Assembly: GCA_035504215.1 (NCBI GenBank)
Contig: DATJSI010000025.1
Span: 1-62,049, forward strand
Length of the DNA: 62,049 bases
Origin: Mycobacteriales bacterium
GTDB lineage: Bacteria; Actinomycetota; Actinomycetes; JAFAQI01
Direction: 5' to 3'
Shown here: positions 52,837-62,049 of the stretch, in pieces
Layout of the letters: every line of letters begins with the position of its first letter
Numbering within the stretch: position 1 is the first letter of the stretch
Notes under the pieces: generated by a model
What the model was told of the DNA's origin: nothing
The model's database searches: none
The model's input: only the letters and a program-made list of their open reading frames with translations
Program-made: the position numbers and the translations under genes

Positions 52837-53330
52837 AGCGCGGCCTCTACCTCGGAAGCGACCTCGTCCGGTGTGCGGCCGTCGGTCCGGATGGTTGCAC
52901 TCGCGACCTCGGCGTACCACGGCCGGCGTTCCTCGAGCATCGACCGCAGCTGCGACCGCAGGTTGCCGATCAACAGCGGCCGGTCTCGGTTCAACCCGAT
53001 CCGTGCGACCGCATCCGTCAGCCCGACGTCGAGGAACACGACCCGCTCGCCCTTGAGCAACGCCCGGGTCTCCGGGTCGACGACTGCGCCGCCCCCGACG
53101 GCAAGAACGCCCGCGTGCTCGGCAACCGCCCGTTTCACCGCGGTTCGCTCGAGCTCGCGAAACACCGGCTCGCCGCGCTCCACGAACAGGTCCGCGATCG
53201 GCATGCTCGCCGCTGCCTCCACATCGGCATCGGTGTCGCGGAACTCTGCGCCACGTCGCTCCGCGACCAGCCGACCGACGGTTGACTTGCCGGCGCCGGG
53301 CGGTCCGACCAGGACGACCAACGGCGTCAC
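52833..53330 (-). CDS. aroK: Shikimate kinase
   Basis: Phosphorylates shikimate. The 165-aa product has the Walker [10 protein letters not shown] (9-17), DTDADVEA (shikimate-binding Asp), FRELERTAV, and AVGGGAVV. The lid holds NRDRPLL. GTG 53330 overlaps the aroC stop as GTGA. Order aroC-aroK-aroB-aroQ is the common actinobacterial one. Confidence 0.96.
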
Positions 53331-54502
53331 CGCACGACCAGTGCGTCGAGGTAGGCCGCGTGGTTGCGCCGGGTCTCCTCGGTCGAGTCGCCACCGAACT
53401 TCTCGAGCGCGGCGTCGGCGAGCACGAGCGCGACCATCGCCTCTGCGACGACGCCCGATGCGGGCACCGCGCAGACGTCGGAGCGCTGGTTGATCGCCTT
53501 CGCGGGCTCGCCGGTGCGCACGTCGACGGTGTCGAGCGCCCGCGGCACGGTGGAGATCGGCTTCATCGCGGCCCGCACCCGCAGCACCTCGCCTGTGCTC
53601 ATGCCACCCTCGGTGCCACCGGAGCGACCCGTGCGCCGGTGCAGCCCGTCCGCGGTCTGCTCGATCTCGTCATGCGCGCGGCTGCCCCGGCTGGCCGCGG
53701 TCGCGAAACCGTCGCCCACCTCCACACCTTTGATCGCCTGGATGCCCATCAAGGCACCGGCCAGCCGCGAGTCCAGCCGGCGGTCCCAGTGGGTGTGGCT
53801 GCCGAGTCCCGGCGGCAGCCCGTGGACGACCACCTCGACCACCCCGCCCAGGGTGTCGGCATCGGCGCGGGCGGCATCGATCTCGGCCACCATCGCGGCG
53901 CTCGCGTTCGCGTCGAAGCAGCGCACGGGATCTGCGTCGATGCGGTCCCGGTCACCGGGCGTAGGCACGGCTGCAGGCGCGGTCACACTGCCGATCGCGA
54001 CGACGTGGCTGAGCACCGTGACCCCCAGCGCTTGCTCCAGGAATGCCTTCGCGACCGCGCCGATCGCGACCCTCGCCGCGGTCTCTCGCGCGCTCGCTCG
54101 CTCGAGCACCGGCCGGGCGTCGTCGAAGCCGTACTTCTGCATGCCGACCAGGTCTGCGTGCCCGGGTCGCGGGCGGGTGAGCGGTGCGGCGCGGGCCAAC
54201 CCTTCGAGCTCGGCCGGGTCGACCGGGTCGGCCGACATCACGGCCTCCCACTTCGGCCACTCGGTGTTGCGCACGAGTACGGCGATCGGCGAGCCGAGCG
54301 TCTGCCCATGCCGCACGCCGCCGAGGATCTCTACCGCGTCCTGCTCGAACGACATCCGCGCGCCCCGCCCGTAGCCGGCCCGCCTGCGCCCGAGCTCGTC
54401 GGCCAGGTCGGCGGTGCTGACCCGGGTGCCGGCCGGGAGCCCGTCAAGGACGGCGACCAGCGCCGGCCCGTGCGACTCCCCTGCCGTCAGCCACCGCAAC
54501 AC
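53327..54502 (-). CDS. aroC: Chorismate synthase
   Basis: FMN enzyme that makes chorismate. The 391-aa product has the N-terminal [52 protein letters not shown] and [15 protein letters not shown] 54502 starts the family sequence ([11 protein letters not shown]) but no SD is seen before it, so the start is a bit uncertain. A terminator hairpin lies 50 bases upstream and marks the first gene of the aro run. Confidence 0.96.
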
Positions 54503-54598: not shown

Positions 54599-55324
54599 TC
54601 ACGCAGCGTGGGCGACACCTGTGGTGAGGACGAACGGGGCGGCGTCACCGATCTGCACGGTTGCCTCGCCGTTCTGGACCGAGATCAGCGCGAAGATCTT
54701 GTCGAAGACCGTGCCCTGGTCGCTGCTCGGACCCGGCGCCTGGACGGTGTACTCGCGGAACTTGTGGTGGGCATAGCCGACCTTGAACTTCGCGGTCTGA
54801 CCCTTGGTCCCGGTCAGCTCGATCCAGAGCGGGCCACCGGCAGCCTTGGTGCCGCCACCCGAGTGGGACGACGACGGGTTGGGGCTCGGCGAGGTGCCGC
54901 TCGAGGGGGTCGACGACGGGCTGCTCGCCGGCACCGTGGACTGCGACACGGGCGAGCCGCCGGTGTCGACCGGTGCGGTGATCAGCGGGATGAACGGGTC
55001 GCGTGCGGCGGGGTGCTTGTTGACCTTCGGCAGCGTCGTCGTACCGCCCTTGTGGGTCTTGCCGGTCGAGGACGGCTGCGACGAGGCCTGTGCCGAGACG
55101 GTCGCGTGGGGAACGACCGCGGCGGTCGGCGTGGAGGAGCCGCCCTTGTGCAGGAGCAGGAAGGCTGCCGCGGCAAGCACGATGACACCCGCCGCACCAC
55201 CGAGGATCAGCAGCCGACGCCGGTTGCCGCCCTCAGGACCGTCACCGTCCGGCTGCACCGGAAGCATCCCGACGCCTTCGTCGGTTGCCGCGCCGGCCGG
55301 GGGCATCGTTGTGGACTCAGTCAT
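54599..55324 (-). CDS. PilP-like membrane-anchored protein of the pilus operon
   Basis: 241-aa protein with a cytoplasmic N-terminus (1-37), one transmembrane helix (38-58, after GNRRR), and an exported part. RDPFIPLI (108-115) resembles the RDPF block of PilP-type pilus alignment proteins. A Ser/Pro/Thr-rich linker (~120-160) leads to a beta-rich domain (~165-235). It is the last gene after pilM, pilN and pilO, the place of pilP. No secretin is expected in a monoderm, so a PilQ link is unlikely. Assignment by position and motif only. Confidence 0.6.
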   Translation of the reverse strand: MTESTTMPPAGAATDEGVGMLPVQPDGDGPEGGNRRRLLILGGAAGVIVLAAAAFLLLHKGGSSTPTAAVVPHATVSAQASSQPSSTGKTHKGGTTTLPKVNKHPAARDPFIPLITAPVDTGGSPVSQSTVPASSPSSTPSSGTSPSPNPSSSHSGGGTKAAGGPLWIELTGTKGQTAKFKVGYAHHKFREYTVQAPGPSSDQGTVFDKIFALISVQNGEATVQIGDAAPFVLTTGVAHAA

Positions 55325-55336
55325 GGCGCCCTGCTC

Positions 55337-56152
55337 CTAGCTCGCCGGGGCCGAGGAGGCCCCAGTGGTTGATGGCGTGGTCGCGGTCGACGTGGCCGGG
55401 GTGGACGTGCCCGGAGCCGGCGTGGTGGTCGCGCTCGGCGTCGTGGTCGGAGCCGGTGCCGTCGCGGTCGTCGGCGTGGTCGTCGTCGACGTGCCGGCGG
55501 GCGGCGAGTAGAAGACGTACGCCGACAGCGTTCCGCCGATGGCGTTGGGCGGCAGCACGTCGGTGCTCGGCGTCGCCGGCAGCGCGCAGCTGACCGACCC
55601 GCTCGAGCCGGCCACCGCCGGGTCCGGGCAGAGCGACCAGTTGGTCACCAGCGTGGACCGGCGTAGCTTCTCCAGCGCCTGGAAGAACGACTCGACGTTC
55701 GGGAACGTGCCGGTGATGGCCAGCGAGACCGGCAGCTGGACCAGCTGGTTCGCCGTGCTCGTCGCCGGCGCGAGGCTCGTGGTGCCACCGCTCGTCGTGG
55801 ATGTACCGGACACCACCGTCGGTGCTCCAGGCGTGATGGAGACCAGGTCGACGCCGGCGCCCGCCGCCGCCGCGGACAGCTGGCGGATGAGCATCGGCTC
55901 GGAGGCGTTCGGCGGCACTTCGCTGGCGAACTTCTGCAGAGCTGCCTGTTGCTGCGGGAGCTGGCGCTGCTCGCTCTCCAGAGAGGCGATCTGCGACTGC
56001 AGGACCGCGTTGGAGGACTGCTGAGTCGCCGCCTGCGACTTGAGGGTCGAGACCTTCGAGTTCTGCGGCTTCACCAGCAGGAACCAGCCCACGACGAGGA
56101 CGGCGAGCACAGCGATCGCTGTGAACACAGTCCATTGGCGCGTCTTGGTCAT
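55337..56152 (-). CDS. pilO: Type IV pilus assembly protein PilO-like
   Basis: 271-aa bitopic protein of the pilus alignment complex. A short cytoplasmic start is followed by a helix (~9-27), a coiled coil rich in Gln (30-75, with LQSQIASLESEQRQLPQQQ), and a ferredoxin-like domain (to ~215, with LPVSLAITGTFPNVESFFQALEKL). The last ~50 residues are Thr/Pro/Ser/Ala repeats, unusual for PilO. ATG 56152 is 1 base after pilN ends. It should pair with PilN. Confidence 0.85.
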   Translation of the reverse strand: MTKTRQWTVFTAIAVLAVLVVGWFLLVKPQNSKVSTLKSQAATQQSSNAVLQSQIASLESEQRQLPQQQAALQKFASEVPPNASEPMLIRQLSAAAAGAGVDLVSITPGAPTVVSGTSTTSGGTTSLAPATSTANQLVQLPVSLAITGTFPNVESFFQALEKLRRSTLVTNWSLCPDPAVAGSSGSVSCALPATPSTDVLPPNAIGGTLSAYVFYSPPAGTSTTTTPTTATAPAPTTTPSATTTPAPGTSTPATSTATTPSTTGASSAPAS

Positions 56153-56153
56153 G

Positions 56154-56840
56154 TCAGCTGCCCGCCTTCTGGACGAATCGGTTTGAGTAGGCCTTGGTCG
56201 TGAGGTTGGCGCTGCTGCCGAAGGTCACGATGGGACGGGTTCCGATCACACCCTCGACCGACGAGGTGAAGACCGGCTGCGAGAACGAGTTCTCCTTGGC
56301 GATCGAGTCGAGCCAAGCCGCGACGTCGTCGTGCTTGAAGCCGACGCCGGAGAACGAGATCGTCCCGATCGTGTTGGTGGCGGCACCAGGCAGCGTCGTG
56401 GTCGAGCTCGAGTTCGGCTCGCCGACGCCAACGGTGTTCTCGTTCGCAGCGACCGCGGTCAGCCACACGTTGCTCGGCACCCGCAGCGACAGGTCGTTCA
56501 GCACGGACGACCACAGCACCTGCTGGCCCATCGCCTCCTGGAGCACACCCTGCTTGGCCTGCACCTGGGCGAAGGTCGCCTTGACATTGGCGAGGCTGTT
56601 CAGCTTGCCCTGCAGGCTGGTCTGCTGAGCCTGGGCCGCACTGACCTCGGCCTGCGCCGATGAGATGCCGCCGCGTGCGTGGACGAACAGCGCCCCGACG
56701 ATGACGAACGACGCGAGGACGGCGGCGCCCATCGCGAGCTGCAGCCGGCGGAACCGCTCTGCCTCCGCGATCTCCGGCGGCATGAGGTTGACGCGCGGCA
56801 TCGCCGCAACGCCGGTCGCCAGCTCGGTCTGCGTGGTCAC
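56154..56840 (-). CDS. pilN: Type IV pilus assembly protein PilN-like
   Basis: 228-aa bitopic protein. The cytoplasmic N-terminus holds the NLMPPEIAEAERFRR block (18-32) that binds PilM in known systems, then a helix (~36-55), a coiled coil (~60-100), and an exported ferredoxin-like domain with GVGFKHDDVAAWLDSI. GTG 56840 overlaps the pilM stop as GTGA. Confidence 0.88.
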   Translation of the reverse strand: MTTQTELATGVAAMPRVNLMPPEIAEAERFRRLQLAMGAAVLASFVIVGALFVHARGGISSAQAEVSAAQAQQTSLQGKLNSLANVKATFAQVQAKQGVLQEAMGQQVLWSSVLNDLSLRVPSNVWLTAVAANENTVGVGEPNSSSTTTLPGAATNTIGTISFSGVGFKHDDVAAWLDSIAKENSFSQPVFTSSVEGVIGTRPIVTFGSSANLTTKAYSNRFVQKAGS

Positions 56841-57916
56841 GACGCCACCCCCAGGGCGAGCCCGACCGGCACTGCGATCTGCGGCTCGACGTAGCTCAGT
56901 TGCTCATCGGTGAGTCCGGTCTTGCCGATGGTCAGCGCCGCGGTAGCGGCGCCCGGCTCGACCGGGAGACGGGTTGCGGCGGCGAGCCGCTGACCCAGAC
57001 CGGTGAGGCGGGCGCCTCCACCGGAAAGCACGATTCGCTGCAGCGGCACCGACGATGGCTGCGCGAGGTAGTAGTCGAGCGATCCGCGGATCTCCTCGAC
57101 GAAGCTGCCGGCAGAGGCCTCGATGACCCGCGCGGCCGGGTGGTCGCTGACCGCCTCGCCGCGAACCGGAGACATCCCCACCTGCTGCTTGACGCCGATC
57201 GCCTGGTCGAACGGAACGCCCAGCCGCTCGCTCACGGCCTCGGTGACGTTGTCGCCGCCCATCAGCAGGATGCGCACGAAGCGCGGGTTGCCGTTCTCGT
57301 GGATGACGATGTTGGTGACCTTGGCGCCGACGTCGATCAAGGCCTCGGTGCCGGCCTGCGACCCGGGCGCACCGCCGATCTCGTCGACCCGGCCCAGGGC
57401 CCGCAGCACCGCGAACGGCGTGAGGTCGACCTGGGTGGCGCGCAGCCCGGCCCGCTTCACCGACTCGAGGGCGGTGAGCACCATGTCCCGGGCGGCGGCG
57501 ACGACGAGCACCCGCAGCATGCGGTTGCCGCCCTCGGCCATGATCTCCGAGATCGGGTGGAAGTCGAGGATGGCCTGCTCGATCGGGATCGGCAGGAAGT
57601 CCTGGACCTGCAGGGGCAACGACTTGCGCAGCTCGTCCGGCTGCATCCAGGGGAGATCGACCTGCCGGACGATCACCTTCTGGTTCGCCACCCCGAGCAC
57701 CACGGACTTCGACGAGAACTTCGCCGTCGACCACAGGTGCTTGATGGCGTCGGCCACGACCTGGGGGTCGATGACCTCACCGTCACGGACGGCTCCTTGC
57801 GGGAGCGCCACCTGGCCGAATCGCTGAAGCGTCGCCGGTCCCTTGCCGAACGCGAGTTCGGCGGCCCGGACACCGGAGGTTCCGATGTCGAGACCGACCG
57901 CAGTTCGTCCTGCCAC
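56837..57916 (-). CDS. pilM: Type IV pilus actin-like protein PilM
   Basis: 359-aa cytoplasmic actin-fold ATP-binding protein that ties PilN/O to the motor. It has phosphate 1 AVGLDIGTSGVRAAEL (7-22), phosphate 2 LIDVGAKVTNIVI, adenosine LSGGGARLTGLG, and the SHS2-type insert near LPLQVQDFLPIPIEQA. GTG 57916 has GGGAGGA upstream. Start of pilMNOP; a 137-base gap precedes it. Confidence 0.93.
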   Translation of the reverse strand: MAGRTAVGLDIGTSGVRAAELAFGKGPATLQRFGQVALPQGAVRDGEVIDPQVVADAIKHLWSTAKFSSKSVVLGVANQKVIVRQVDLPWMQPDELRKSLPLQVQDFLPIPIEQAILDFHPISEIMAEGGNRMLRVLVVAAARDMVLTALESVKRAGLRATQVDLTPFAVLRALGRVDEIGGAPGSQAGTEALIDVGAKVTNIVIHENGNPRFVRILLMGGDNVTEAVSERLGVPFDQAIGVKQQVGMSPVRGEAVSDHPAARVIEASAGSFVEEIRGSLDYYLAQPSSVPLQRIVLSGGGARLTGLGQRLAAATRLPVEPGAATAALTIGKTGLTDEQLSYVEPQIAVPVGLALGVAS

Positions 57917-58053: not shown

Positions 58054-58839
58054 TCACGATCCCGAAGTAATACGGGTATAAGCGTGCGCAAGGGGATGGC
58101 CGGCATAGATCCCCACCAAAAGGCCGATCAGCATGAATGGCCCGAAGGGAACCCGGCTCTTGCGCCCACCCCCGCGCATCCCCACCACTACGACGATGCT
58201 GACGACCGCACCGATCACGAATGCGGCAAATGCCCCGACCAGCAGCTGGCCCCACCCGAGCCATCCGAGGTACATCCCGACCACGCCGGACAGCTTGACG
58301 TCCCCTAAGCCCATTCCGGCCGGATAGACGAGCCATACGAGCCCGTAGAAGCCGGCCAGGGCGGCCATGCCCAGCAACGCCCGCACGTAGGCGTGTGGCG
58401 CGTTGTCGGCCCACGCCGCGGCACCGAGCAGCGCTAGGCCGATCGGGTACGACGGCAGCGTGAGCGCGTCCGGGAGCCGCAGCAGGTCGAGGTCGATCAT
58501 CGTGAGCGCCACCCCGACCGCGGCCAGGTAGAGGTACGCCGGCAGGTCGGCGTGAATCCCGAAGTGCAGGCCGAAGGCGACGAACAGTGCGGCGGTCGCG
58601 AGCTCGACCAGCGGGTAGCGAACCGAGATCCGTGCGCCACAGCTGCGGCAGCGCCCGCGCAGGATCACCCAGGACACGACCGGGATGTTGTCCCGATGCT
58701 CGATCGGCGCATCGCACTGCGGGCAGTGCGATGCCGGGTGCGCCACCGACTCCTTGCGCGGCACCCGCCAGATGACGACATTGAGGAACGAGCCGATCGC
58801 CAGCCCGAGCAGCCCGATGATGACGAGCAGGCCGGCCAC
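58054..58839 (-). CDS. pilD: Type IV prepilin peptidase (A24), with N-methylase domain
   Basis: 261-aa membrane protease that cuts and N-methylates prepilins. The N-terminal domain has the Cys4 set C39, C42, C64, C67, and the GSFLNVVIWRVPR start. Six to eight helices follow, with catalytic Asp in TMIDLDLLRLPD (D116 or D118) and Asp180 in GLGDVKL. GTG 58839, weak SD. It lies just before pilM and after the pilin genes, so one locus holds substrates and processing enzyme. Confidence 0.93.
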   Translation of the reverse strand: MAGLLVIIGLLGLAIGSFLNVVIWRVPRKESVAHPASHCPQCDAPIEHRDNIPVVSWVILRGRCRSCGARISVRYPLVELATAALFVAFGLHFGIHADLPAYLYLAAVGVALTMIDLDLLRLPDALTLPSYPIGLALLGAAAWADNAPHAYVRALLGMAALAGFYGLVWLVYPAGMGLGDVKLSGVVGMYLGWLGWGQLLVGAFAAFVIGAVVSIVVVVGMRGGGRKSRVPFGPFMLIGLLVGIYAGHPLAHAYTRITSGS

Positions 58840-58906: not shown

Positions 58907-60679
58907 TCAGCCGCCCGAGCTGTTTTCCTGGATGCTGCTGAGCCCCGCTGCCGGGTTCGTCGGCGGCGCGTTCCACTTGAGCAACAGGTAGTTCTTCGTC
59001 GCCGACGCGGCAGACGGGATGTTGCTCCCGTCGCAGGACGTGACCACGATCTGCGCCCAGCCCACTGATGTCTGCGACGGGTCGGGCGCCATGCAGTAGC
59101 CGTCCGCCTTGTTGATCAGCAGGTAGGAGTTGGCGTAGGTGTTCGCGACGCCGGTGGGATCCCAGAGCTCGTTGTCAGGAGGCGTGCCGGTCGGGCACTG
59201 GACGCCGTAGACCAAGCCGTTCAGCGTGCCGGGTGAGACCAGGCAGTCCTTCACGGACGACGACGGACTCGACGGGATGCACCCGCCCGCACCCGCCGCG
59301 CAGTTCGTGTAGAAGATGCCGTACGACCCGGACACCGTCTGGAAGTGCCAGATCTGGTTCCATGTCAGGGTGGTGGAGTCCGGCGCCTGCTTGCACGGGT
59401 AGGCGATCAGCTTGTTGCTGAAGTTCTGCCCGTTGACGTCCAGGCAGTTGCCGAACAGCGCGTAGTTGGCGAACTGCTGGGTCGGCGAGCCCGGGACGCC
59501 GGTCGTGTTGCTGCCCGACTTGCCGGCACCGACCTGCGGGTCGGGATACCAGGCGGTCAGGTCCTGCGACGACCCGCTGCAGGTCACCAGGCTCAGCGCC
59601 GCACCGGCAACGGCGGCCGATGAGGTCGTCACGCCGGCGCCCTCGAGGCAGCCGCCGGGGTCCGGCGACGTGCTGCCGCCGACCTTGCCGTCGTTGATGT
59701 CAGGTGCTTCGAGCTGGCCGTTGTCGTTGTAGGCGAACTCCTGCTCCTGCTGGGTCTGGTTGGCGTACGGGTACGTCGTGCCGGACCCACTTGTGGCGCA
59801 GGTCTCAAGCTTCGGTGTCCCGGCGTGACCGTACGTGCTGGTCACGTTCTGGATGCAGAGATCCAGGGTCGTGTCACCGCCGTAGAACAGCGTGAGGTCG
59901 CCGCGGTACTGCCAGGTCTGCTGCGGGGTGCCGAGCGCGAGGCAGGGCTCCATCGTCGGAATAGTGCCGGCGCTGGGCTCCGCGGAGCCCGCATCGAGGC
60001 ACATCTGGTCCTGGCCGCCGCTGTTGTACTCGGCCATCCGGCCGCCGACGGTGTTGGTGTTGGTGGCGTTGAACTCGTACACCGCGTGCAACGTCCGGTC
60101 ACCCTCTGCGGTGCCGCTGTAGCCGGGCAGCTGCCCGCTGAGGCCGTAGGACTGGATGAACGCGTAGGTCGGCACGTACTTCACGATGCCGGCCTTGCAC
60201 GGGATCGCGTTCGACGACCACCAGCTGGTCGTCGAGTCGGTCTCGTGCGAGGTCGGGTCGGTCTGGAAGTACGTGATCACCGCACGGTAGGTCGCGGTCT
60301 CGCTCGACGGCGTGATCTGCTCGACGGTCCCGGTGATCTGGTCGCCGGCAACGGTCACCGTCTGTGCCGGGCTGCCCACGGTCAGCGTCACGCCGCCGGA
60401 GTCGCTCGGGTCCGTACAGGGCAGCTTGGTGAGGTCACCGCCACCGTTCGTCGAGGTGTTGCGCAGCTGGCCGAGCGCGGCCTGCATGCCGGCCTGGGCG
60501 GCGTCCACCGTCCGCACCTGCTTCTGTGCAAGCGTCGTCGGTCCGACCTGGTTGATCATGATGTTGGCCACCGCGACGCTTACCACCGCGATGATGAGGA
60601 TCAGGAACAACGTGAAGATCAGCGCGAAGCCGCCGTCGTCGTTCTGACGGCTGCGCACGATCCGGATCAATCGGTTCAT
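58907..60679 (-). CDS. Large pilin-like protein with QxW (ricin-B-like) lectin motifs
   Basis: 590-aa protein. A prepilin-like N-terminus has NDDGGFALIFTLFLILII; cleavage would follow Gly17, giving Phe at +1, but position +5 is Phe22 instead of Glu. A PilX-like stalk (~30-80) follows. From ~225 to 550 there are Cys-rich repeats of the form CLD...PC...QxW: QTW at 254-256, QIW at 442-444, with CIQNV, CLEGAG and CLDVNG blocks. These suggest beta-trefoil R-type lectin units. ATG 60679 overlaps the PilW-like stop as ATGA. Sugar binding is inferred. Confidence 0.75.
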   Translation of the reverse strand: MNRLIRIVRSRQNDDGGFALIFTLFLILIIAVVSVAVANIMINQVGPTTLAQKQVRTVDAAQAGMQAALGQLRNTSTNGGGDLTKLPCTDPSDSGGVTLTVGSPAQTVTVAGDQITGTVEQITPSSETATYRAVITYFQTDPTSHETDSTTSWWSSNAIPCKAGIVKYVPTYAFIQSYGLSGQLPGYSGTAEGDRTLHAVYEFNATNTNTVGGRMAEYNSGGQDQMCLDAGSAEPSAGTIPTMEPCLALGTPQQTWQYRGDLTLFYGGDTTLDLCIQNVTSTYGHAGTPKLETCATSGSGTTYPYANQTQQEQEFAYNDNGQLEAPDINDGKVGGSTSPDPGGCLEGAGVTTSSAAVAGAALSLVTCSGSSQDLTAWYPDPQVGAGKSGSNTTGVPGSPTQQFANYALFGNCLDVNGQNFSNKLIAYPCKQAPDSTTLTWNQIWHFQTVSGSYGIFYTNCAAGAGGCIPSSPSSSVKDCLVSPGTLNGLVYGVQCPTGTPPDNELWDPTGVANTYANSYLLINKADGYCMAPDPSQTSVGWAQIVVTSCDGSNIPSAASATKNYLLLKWNAPPTNPAAGLSSIQENSSGG

Positions 60680-61296
60680 GGACGACCAACCTGGGTGCAT
60701 GTTGCGGTGGTGGGTGCGGTGTCTGACGTCGAGTTGATCGCAGTCAGGGTGACCTGGCTGTTCGAGCTCGTGGAGGGCGCGCCGCTGGTCGCCGTGAATG
60801 TCACGGTCAGCTCTTCTTTTGCGTCCGCCGACGATGTCGGCGAGATCGAGAAGACCGGGGTCGAGCCGACCTGGCTGATGCCGATCGCGGCGGTCGACCA
60901 GTTGGTCGCCGTCACGGTGCCAGTGCCGGTCAACGGGGGCTGCCAGGTCCGCCATTGCAACTTGCCGCCGGCCGAGACCCAGCGCCACTGAGTGCAGGTC
61001 TGCTGCTGACCGGTGTTGCCGGTCTGGAACTCGAAGTAGAAGTTCCCGTCCGTGCCGGTGCCGGGCGCGGTGATCGCATTGGCGTACCGCGCCGAGTGGT
61101 CCAGCAGCGTGATCACCTTGCGGGCGGCGGACATGTCGTTGCTCTGACCGTTCTGCCGCCGGCTCTCGCGCATCATGTTGACGATCGCCGTCGTGATGAT
61201 CGCCATGATCATCGTGAAGATGATCATCACCACCAGCAGCTCGATGAGGGACGTGCCCTCATCAGAGCGCTGGATCCGGTCTCGTAGTCGACGCAT
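60676..61296 (-). CDS. Type IV prepilin (PilW-like minor pilin)
   Basis: 206-aa prepilin with a 14-residue basic leader, cleavage after Gly14 in DEGTSLIELLVVMIIF (Thr at +1, Glu at +5), a hydrophobic helix (~17-41), and a globular part (~60-200) with paired Cys. Position +1 is Thr and not Phe, which PilD can accept in other species. It lies between the IPT protein and the lectin-like pilin, overlapping the latter by 4 bases. Confidence 0.85.
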   Translation of the reverse strand: MRRLRDRIQRSDEGTSLIELLVVMIIFTMIMAIITTAIVNMMRESRRQNGQSNDMSAARKVITLLDHSARYANAITAPGTGTDGNFYFEFQTGNTGQQQTCTQWRWVSAGGKLQWRTWQPPLTGTGTVTATNWSTAAIGISQVGSTPVFSISPTSSADAKEELTVTFTATSGAPSTSSNSQVTLTAINSTSDTAPTTATCTQVGRP

Positions 61297-61298
61297 CG

Positions 61299-62049
61299 CT
61301 AGCTCGCCGTCATCGTCTTGGAGTAGGCGTTACTGACGCCGCCGTCGGGGTTGGTGACCGTGATGACCACCGTCACGCTCCCTGAGGTCGGTGTGGCGAG
61401 CGCCTTGGCGCTGAAGCTCAACGACGTCGAGCTCGTGACGGTCGTCGCGGAGATGCTCGTCATCGACGTCCCGTTCTCGGTGATCGTGACCGTCGCGCCG
61501 CTCACGAAGCCGGTGCCGGTCAACGTGTAGGTCGTCGACGAGTTGTGCTTGACGGTCGCCGGCGTCACCGCCGTGATCGTCGGTGCCGCGTCAACCGTCA
61601 GCCCGATGGATGCCGATCCGCCGTCGGGGTTGGTCACCGTGATGGTGTCGGTGCCCGTGGCGGTCGCGTTGAAGTTGTTCAGCACGATCGAGGTCGAGGT
61701 GATCGTGCCGACCGTCCAGGTGCCGTTGCTCGCCGCGACGGTCAGGCCCGACTGGAAGCCGGTGCCGACCAGCGTGATGGTCTTCGCCTGGCCCTTGACG
61801 ACCGGCGAACCCGTGATCGACGTGAGGGTCGGCTTGGGGGTGATGGTGATCGAGTAGCTGGACACGCCCCCGTCGGGGTTGGTCACGGTCAGCAGGTCCG
61901 GACCGGTCGACGTGGGCAGGAAGTTGTTCAGGGTGATCGACGTCGAGGTCACCGTGCCCAAGGTGAACGTGCCGTTCGCGGCCGCCACGGACAGGCCGGT
62001 CTGGAAGCCGGTGCCGGTCAGTGTCTCCGTGTGGGACACGCTGACGAGC
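61299..62049 (-). CDS. IPT/TIG-repeat protein of the pilus locus (partial, 5' end missing)
   Basis: C-terminal 249 residues of a longer protein that runs off the right edge. Three IPT/TIG Ig-like units are seen, each with LTGTGF or LVGTGF near its start and VTNPDGG near its end. No cell-wall sorting signal or anchor is seen at the C-terminus (KTMTAS). The stop TAG is 2 bases before the PilW-like ATG, so it is co-transcribed. If its missing start has a prepilin leader it would be a pilus tip protein; otherwise a secreted adhesin. Confidence 0.75.
   Translation of the reverse strand, partial: LVSVSHTETLTGTGFQTGLSVAAANGTFTLGTVTSTSITLNNFLPTSTGPDLLTVTNPDGGVSSYSITITPKPTLTSITGSPVVKGQAKTITLVGTGFQSGLTVAASNGTWTVGTITSTSIVLNNFNATATGTDTITVTNPDGGSASIGLTVDAAPTITAVTPATVKHNSSTTYTLTGTGFVSGATVTITENGTSMTSISATTVTSSTSLSFSAKALATPTSGSVTVVITVTNPDGGVSNAYSKTMTAS
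61342..61883 (-). repeat. Tandem IPT repeat units (DNA level)
   Basis: The 14-mer CCGTCGGGGTTGGT (plus strand) recurs at 61342-61355, 61621-61634 and 61870-61883, spaced 279 and 249 bases (93 and 83 codons). Each copy encodes the end of VTNPDGG. The repeats mark domain duplication within the IPT gene, and further copies are likely beyond the window. Confidence 0.8.

What the first reader, a model, noticed from the sequence alone, without database searches (positions are those of the whole stretch)
58907..60679. Pilin-like protein fused to a large QxW lectin-like domain
Seen: a prepilin-type N-terminus (GGFALIF, hydrophobic helix) joined to ~500 residues with repeated CLD/PC/QxW units. QxW Cys-rich units are the mark of ricin-B-type beta-trefoils. 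A pilus subunit that carries glycan-binding domains would be an adhesin displayed on the pilus. The +5 Glu is absent, as in GspK/PilX-type tip subunits, which suggests a tip place. Function is inference.
Basis: partly seen in the sequence, partly recalled or inferred. Interest (0 to 1): 0.75.

Follow-up and report, generated by a model that had tools for sequence, protein, structure and literature searches.

The report
Pilus-tip pilin carrying two lectin domains
An actinobacterium encodes a pilus-tip-type subunit whose outer part is two sugar-binding (ricin-B-type) domains; the same gene, nearly always beside two other pilus-subunit genes, recurs in many actinobacteria, some of which carry several such sets for a single pilus machine, which hints at exchangeable sugar-gripping pilus tips.

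Summary
Window 58907-60679 (-) is a 590-residue ORF: a charged leader ending in Gly17, a long hydrophobic helix with no Glu at +5, a pilin-like beta module, and two complete ricin-B beta-trefoils (six Cys-paired repeats). Pfam Ricin_B_lectin matches at 2.4e-10, and in all 53 relatives tested. AlphaFold2 predicts a 58-residue N-terminal helix and two trefoils (VIA Z 16-17 to CBM13 and R-type lectins); the pilin module's best matches are minor pilins of tip complexes.

The gene ends a three-pilin set (V with Ig/TIG stalk, W, X-lectin) within a type IV pilus operon (pilD-M-N-O downstream; pilB-T-C-A on a probably adjoining contig). Orthologues occur in about 70 named actinobacterial loci, mostly with the V/W partners. 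One lectin site (D414, aromatic 427, K430, N441, Q/H442) is almost invariant.

Most likely it caps the pilus tip and binds glycans. It works like S. sanguinis PilC, but with a different lectin fold on a GspK/PilX-like pilin. The most interesting aspect: some genomes have one PilM but up to seven unlinked lectin-pilin genes, most with their own V/W partners. Binding, pilus location and tip exchange are not shown experimentally.

The parts
58907..60679 (-). X-lectin: modular minor pilin with two ricin-B beta-trefoils (590 aa)
60629..60679 (-). Residues 1-17: charged leader ending in Gly17, predicted to be removed by PilD; mature protein would start FALIF, no Glu5
   Evidence: sequence, family N-termini; cleavage inferred
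60059..60628 (-). Residues 18-207: pilin module, long helix plus beta-sheet
   Evidence: best VIA rows are minor pilins, Z 6.1-7.2
59534..60058 (-). Residues 208-382: beta-trefoil 1 (repeats 1-3), nearest CBM13 of Streptomyces lividans xylanase
   Evidence: Z about 16.5; Pfam stretch 223-310
58964..59503 (-). Residues 393-572: beta-trefoil 2 (repeats 4-6)
   Evidence: Z about 17
59348..59446 (-). Residues 412-444: repeat 4, the almost invariant predicted glycan site (D414, Y427, K430, N441, Q442, W444)
   Evidence: function inferred
60676..61296 (-). W: 206-aa prepilin with Glu5 (GTSLIEL); its stop codon overlaps the start codon of the lectin gene
61299..62048 (-). V (3' part): TIG/Ig-repeat end of a modular pilin, cut by the contig end; its probable 5' part is at the end of own-genome contig C142
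   Evidence: the intact gene order is seen in G002 (locus L014)
58054..58839 (-). pilD, prepilin peptidase
   Evidence: Pfam A24_N_bact 1.5e-36 and Peptidase_A24 2.7e-10
56837..57916 (-). pilM
   Evidence: Pfam PilM_2 1.4e-44
56154..56840 (-). pilN
   Evidence: Pfam PilN 5.8e-8
55337..56152 (-). pilO
   Evidence: Pfam PilO 2.7e-11

Best explanation
The protein is a modular minor pilin of a type IV pilus. PilD cuts after Gly17. The long helix enters the pilus together with its gene neighbours V (Ig/TIG stalk) and W, forming the tip complex from which the pilus starts. Lacking Glu5, this subunit takes the capping place held by GspK/PilX-type pilins elsewhere. Its two ricin-B beta-trefoils face outwards and bind glycans, chiefly through the conserved site in repeat 4, so that the pilus becomes a sugar-specific adhesive tip. 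Shown here: the gene, its operon, the family, predicted folds and the conserved site. Inferred: cleavage, tip position, glycan binding and adhesion.
For: Ricin_B_lectin in the window protein and all 53 relatives. Two trefoils in the predicted structure. Long N-terminal helix, no Glu5 across the family. The pilin module resembles S. sanguinis PilA and XcpV/GspI-type pilins, with weak GspK and PilX_N profile matches. PilV-type neighbour in 72 and PilW-type in 63 of 77 loci, pilD/pilM in 42. Glu5 is present in V and W but absent in X. The 2-alpha site is almost invariant. Precedents: lectin pilin PilC at the tip of S. sanguinis pili, and the K subunit without Glu5 capping HIJK complexes.
Against: No experiment. 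The pilin module has no Foldseek match at E <= 0.001, and its Z values of 6-7 are modest. GspK/PilX_N matches are weak and N-terminal only. The canonical N_methyl motif is not matched. Some paralogues have no V or W neighbour. The natural ligand is unknown.
Confidence: 0.75

Rival explanations
1. The trefoils bind the cell's own wall polysaccharide or matrix, holding the tip complex or helping the pilus cross the thick monoderm wall, rather than foreign surfaces.
For: The family is found only in monoderm actinobacteria in these searches, and trefoil 1 is nearest to a polysaccharide-binding CBM13.
Against: Assembly help needs no second lectin and no multiplication of unlinked copies. The precedent PilC binds host glycans.
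Confidence: 0.12
2. The trefoils no longer bind sugars; they are structural or protein-binding modules shielding the tip.
For: Repeats 3, 5 and 6 have lost the Asp of the sugar site in most members, and repeat 2 keeps it in only about half.
Against: Repeat 4 keeps Asp and Asn in 53 of 53 and Q/H in 53 of 53, with an aromatic residue at 427; repeat 1 keeps Asp in 45 and Gln in 51 of 53.
Confidence: 0.08
3. It is a membrane-anchored cell-surface lectin that is co-transcribed with pil genes but not built into pili.
For: The N-terminal helix could serve as a plain transmembrane anchor; the canonical N_methyl profile does not match.
Against: The leader ends in a small residue, mostly Gly, followed by a non-charged hydrophobic stretch in all relatives inspected. 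A pilin-type beta module follows the helix. Partners are prepilins even at unlinked loci.
Confidence: 0.05

Closest known systems
PilC, with PilA and PilB, of Streptococcus sanguinis type 4 pili (PMC9934059, PMC8179133)
   Same: Modular minor pilin of a monoderm with a C-terminal lectin module; part of a three-pilin set; predicted at the tip; replaces the non-pilin adhesin PilY1.
   Different: PilC carries a concanavalin A-like lectin and has Glu5. Here there are two ricin-B trefoils on a pilin without Glu5, and the partner V has an Ig-like stalk instead of vWA.
GspK/XcpX and PilK/PilX-type capping minor pilins (HIJK tip complex)
   Same: No Glu5; last of the minor-pilin genes; weak GspK and PilX_N profile matches at the N-terminus; bulky C-terminal addition.
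   Different: GspK has an alpha-domain inserted in the pilin sheet (PMC8179133); here trefoils follow the pilin module. The module's best structural matches were I-type pilins (XcpV, PilA), not K.
R-type lectins and CBM13 (Ricin_B_lectin, PF00652), e.g. the Streptomyces lividans xylanase CBM13 (1knl/1knm)
   Same: Beta-trefoil with three Cys-paired repeats and QxW-like ends; Z about 16-17.
   Different: Two trefoils fused to a pilin, with degenerate repeats and one strongly kept site.
Zoospore type IV pili of Actinoplanes missouriensis (Kimura et al. 2019, as cited in PMC8325347)
   Same: A genus in which this family is common; those pili are needed for zoospore adhesion.
   Different: No lectin pilin is described in the texts I could read; the 2019 paper was not held, and A. 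missouriensis itself was not tested.

Membership tests
Capping minor pilin (GspK/PilX type) | Class III signal: charged leader, small residue, hydrophobic helix | tested here: met
   Sequence of the window protein and of the relatives; helix 16-73. Actual cleavage not testable.
Capping minor pilin (GspK/PilX type) | No Glu at +5 | tested here: met
   Phe at +5; no Glu5 in the N-termini listed
Capping minor pilin (GspK/PilX type) | Match to the family profile (GspK NF037980 or PilX_N PF14341) | tested here: inconclusive
   GspK 13 of 53, best 3.8e-5, window 0.013, below cut-off; PilX_N 4 of 53, best 0.002
Capping minor pilin (GspK/PilX type) | Pilin fold of the N-terminal module | tested here: inconclusive
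   Best four VIA rows are minor pilins (S. sanguinis PilA, XcpV twice, pseudopilus model), Z 6.1-7.2; no significant Foldseek match; GspK not listed, not excluded
Capping minor pilin (GspK/PilX type) | Encoded last in a minor-pilin set within a type IV filament operon | tested here: met
   Order V-W-X followed by pilD-M-N-O, or preceded by the whole machine
Canonical type IV pilin (N_methyl, PF07963/IPR012902) | Match to the N_methyl motif GFxxxE | tested here: not met
   No match; so it is not filed as a canonical pilin
R-type lectin (Ricin_B_lectin / CBM13) | Profile match over the curated cut-off | tested here: met
   41.1 bits against cut-off 29; all 53 relatives match at E <= 0.01
R-type lectin (Ricin_B_lectin / CBM13) | Beta-trefoil fold | tested here: met
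   Predicted model, Z 16-17 for each trefoil
R-type lectin (Ricin_B_lectin / CBM13) | Carbohydrate binding | not testable with these tools
   Site residues conserved in repeat 4
Modular pilin (Pelicic) | Pilin module joined to a domain not specific to pili | tested here: met
   the definition in PMC8179133 was used with the canonical prepilin motif, which is not matched here
Modular pilin (Pelicic) | Present in the filament and serving a pilus function | not testable with these tools
   Needs pilus preparations and mutants

The most novel reading that the evidence does not exclude
Some actinobacterial type IV pili have exchangeable tips: one assembly machine serves several unlinked three-pilin cassettes (V, W, X-lectin), each presenting a different pair of beta-trefoil lectins, so that a cell or zoospore can choose or mix what its pili grip.
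Probability: 0.35. Interest if true: 0.8.

Novelty: new variant of a known kind. Interest (0 to 1): 0.6.

Why it matters
How monoderm bacteria without PilY1 give their type IV pili a specific grip is worked out in one model, S. sanguinis. This family offers a second solution with a different lectin fold, spread over many cultured actinobacteria, including the genus Actinoplanes, whose zoospore pili are known to mediate adhesion (PMC8325347). Glycan binding can be tested directly on purified trefoils. The one-machine, many-tips arrangement, if real, makes exchange of pilus tips testable by removing single cassettes.

Tried and rejected
A first scan of named genomes with the single sequence found nothing; the alignment found 71 loci. 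No relatives on plasmids. A search of the own genome with the ricin profile hit only this gene, and the full protein found one copy, so the many-cassette case does not apply to the window's own genome at that sensitivity. The pilin module gave no Foldseek match at E <= 0.001; GspK was not among the VIA rows, which does not exclude it. A first FliA motif (TCAA/G...GCCG) gave nothing specific. The published consensus TAAA-N-GCCGATAA gave an enrichment upstream of V in other lineages but no site before the pil genes of the window's genome. The 2019 Actinoplanes pili paper was not held. Text searches for pilins with ricin-type or trefoil domains found no description. A plain membrane lectin was considered and rated low (see rivals).

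Full report
What is there. The ORF at 58907-60679 on the minus strand encodes 590 residues. The window is a whole contig (G000:C25) of a 3.47 Mb draft genome in 150 contigs. The protein starts with a 17-residue charged leader ending in Gly-Gly, followed by FALIFTLFLILIIAVVSVAVANIMINQV; +5 is Phe. Pfam finds Ricin_B_lectin at 2.4e-10, above its cut-off, and nothing else.

Operon. Directly upstream lies a 206-aa prepilin with Glu5 (GTSLIEL), whose stop codon overlaps the lectin gene's start codon. Before it is the end of a protein with a TIG domain that runs off the contig. A prepilin start with GFSMVEM and Ig-like sequence sits at the end of contig C142, behind pilB, pilT, pilC and three pilA-like genes. 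That the two contigs join is inference, but a same-family genome (G002) carries the intact order: pilA-like, V with Ig-like repeats, W, lectin pilin, pilD, pilM, pilN, pilO (locus L014). Downstream in the window are pilD, pilM, pilN and pilO by Pfam. The V protein of L014 matches the NCBIfam PilV profile at 9e-8, below its cut-off.

A family. Among relatives, two of eleven same-family genomes carry a full-length orthologue, with scattered members elsewhere in the class: 14 of 394 class genomes at E <= 1e-10, one of which (G041) matches only towards the N-terminus. In the phylum draw only the own genome and two N-terminal matches appeared. A profile scan of named genomes returned 71 loci: Actinoplanes, Paractinoplanes, Dactylosporangium, Virgisporangium, Planobispora, Planomonospora, Spirillospora, Demequina, Cellulomonas, Microbacterium, Frankiales MAGs and others. 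Most cover nearly the whole length, and all 53 tested match Ricin_B_lectin. In 77 loci a PilV-type match is present in 72 and a PilW-type match in 63; 42 also show pilD and pilM, and about 34 pilB, pilT and pilC, within the fetched stretch. In the N-termini inspected, a leader ending in a small residue, mostly Gly, and no Glu at +5 were constant.

Structure. AlphaFold2 on 53 sequences gave mean pLDDT 82.4, pTM 0.64: helix 16-73, pilin-like strands 97-202, then two beta-trefoils at about 208-382 and 393-572. VIA-align gives Z 16-17; trefoil 1 is nearest the CBM13 of Streptomyces xylanases, trefoil 2 nearest a galactanase module and a designed trefoil. Foldseek lists double-trefoil lectin chains first, at high rmsd because the two trefoils are placed differently. 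Folded alone, the pilin module reached pLDDT 87.2. Its best four VIA rows are S. sanguinis PilA, two XcpV structures and the XcpGHIJK pseudopilus model, Z 6.1-7.2; the next rows are 5.2 and then 3.9 or lower. These Z values are modest, so the pilin fold is supported, not proven. GspK (13 of 53, best 3.8e-5) and PilX_N (4 of 53) profiles match weakly.

Binding site. Each of the six repeats has a Cys pair; those of repeats 1, 2, 4, 5 and 6 are in 53 of 53 sequences. In repeat 4 the residues expected of an R-type lectin site are essentially invariant: D414, W/Y427, K430, N441 and Q/H442. In eleven further paralogues D414, K430, N441 and Q/H442 are kept and 427 is aromatic. Repeat 1 keeps Asp in 45 and Gln in 51 of 53; the other repeats keep the Asp in half or fewer. 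One, perhaps two, glycan sites are therefore predicted. That these positions equal the sugar contacts of known R-type lectins rests on general knowledge of that family; no sugar complex was superposed.

Mechanism. In HIJK-type tip complexes the capping subunit lacks Glu5 and filament assembly starts from this complex; S. sanguinis presents lectin and vWA modules on minor pilins at the tip (PMC9934059; PMC10191384; PMC8179133). The gene order V-W-X, Glu5 in V and W but not in X, and the bulky C-terminal lectin all fit a capping tip adhesin. Cleavage, tip position and binding are inferred.

Several tips, one machine. In 25 genomes searched, copies ranged from one to three, with seven in Spirilliplanes yamanashiensis. 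Six of these genomes, searched with the window's PilM, each gave one match. In four of the six all lectin genes lie on contigs other than that of pilM. In three of those four the machine operon pilB-T-C-A-D-M-(N)-O has no V or W match; in Spirilliplanes it has a short V and a W but no lectin pilin. Of 11 paralogue loci, 9 have a V- or W-type prepilin beside the lectin gene, against 2 such patterns in 446 kb of other flank; two Spirilliplanes copies stand alone. This suggests, but does not show, exchangeable tips. The window's own genome has a single copy.

Regulation elsewhere. A WhiG/FliA-type promoter pattern (TAAA-N14-16-GCCGATAA, up to two mismatches; consensus from PMC8325347) lies within 450 bp before the V prepilin in 13 of 59 loci, against 20 of 749 control gene starts; Fisher P is 8e-8, or 0.009 when related loci are collapsed by hand to six. 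The V start was set at the prepilin motif and control starts at predicted ORF starts, and related sequences are not independent, so this is a lead only. None was found before the pil genes of the window's genome. The same paper reports that Actinoplanes missouriensis zoospore pili serve adhesion and that such sigma factors drive its pil genes.

Novelty. Modular pilins, and lectin pilins among them, are known. The 2021 survey counted 264 architectures but required the canonical prepilin motif, which the window protein does not match, so this family was probably missed (inference; its dataset was not read). I found no description of a trefoil-bearing pilin in the searchable literature, which leaves out most subscription papers. 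I rate it a new variant of a known kind.

Noticed in passing
61299-62048, and the end of own-genome contig C142 (L033); L062, L016, L018, L072, L080, L092, L096: The upstream V prepilin is itself modular: a Glu5 pilin followed by hundreds of residues of TIG/Ig-like repeats that differ between lineages; in the extra paralogue cassettes V is short (about 190 aa).
   Followed up: partly
L163-L169 (Spirilliplanes yamanashiensis), L170-L173, L066, L078: Lectin-pilin genes multiplied and scattered over the genome (seven in Spirilliplanes; tandem copies in Actinoplanes italicus and A. philippinensis) while PilM is single in the six genomes tested.
   Followed up: partly
L085 6864-6890 and upstream of V in 12 other loci: WhiG/FliA-type promoter patterns before the V-W-X set in some Actinoplanes-like and Planobispora-like genomes, one of them a perfect match (L085).
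   Followed up: partly
53327-54502; L016, L064, L072, L076, L080: Shikimate genes (aroC, then aroK/aroB/aroQ in the window) follow the pil operon, and aroC sits behind pilO or pilN in several distant relatives.
   Followed up: no
54599-55324: A 241-aa protein after pilO with one apparent membrane span and a Ser/Thr/Pro-rich stretch has no clear Pfam family; its place fits an unrecognised pilus assembly protein.
   Followed up: no
L007, L061 (G041, G647): Other actinobacteria have pilins with a related N-terminus but a different, non-lectin C-terminal part, so the capping pilin may carry other modules elsewhere.
   Followed up: no
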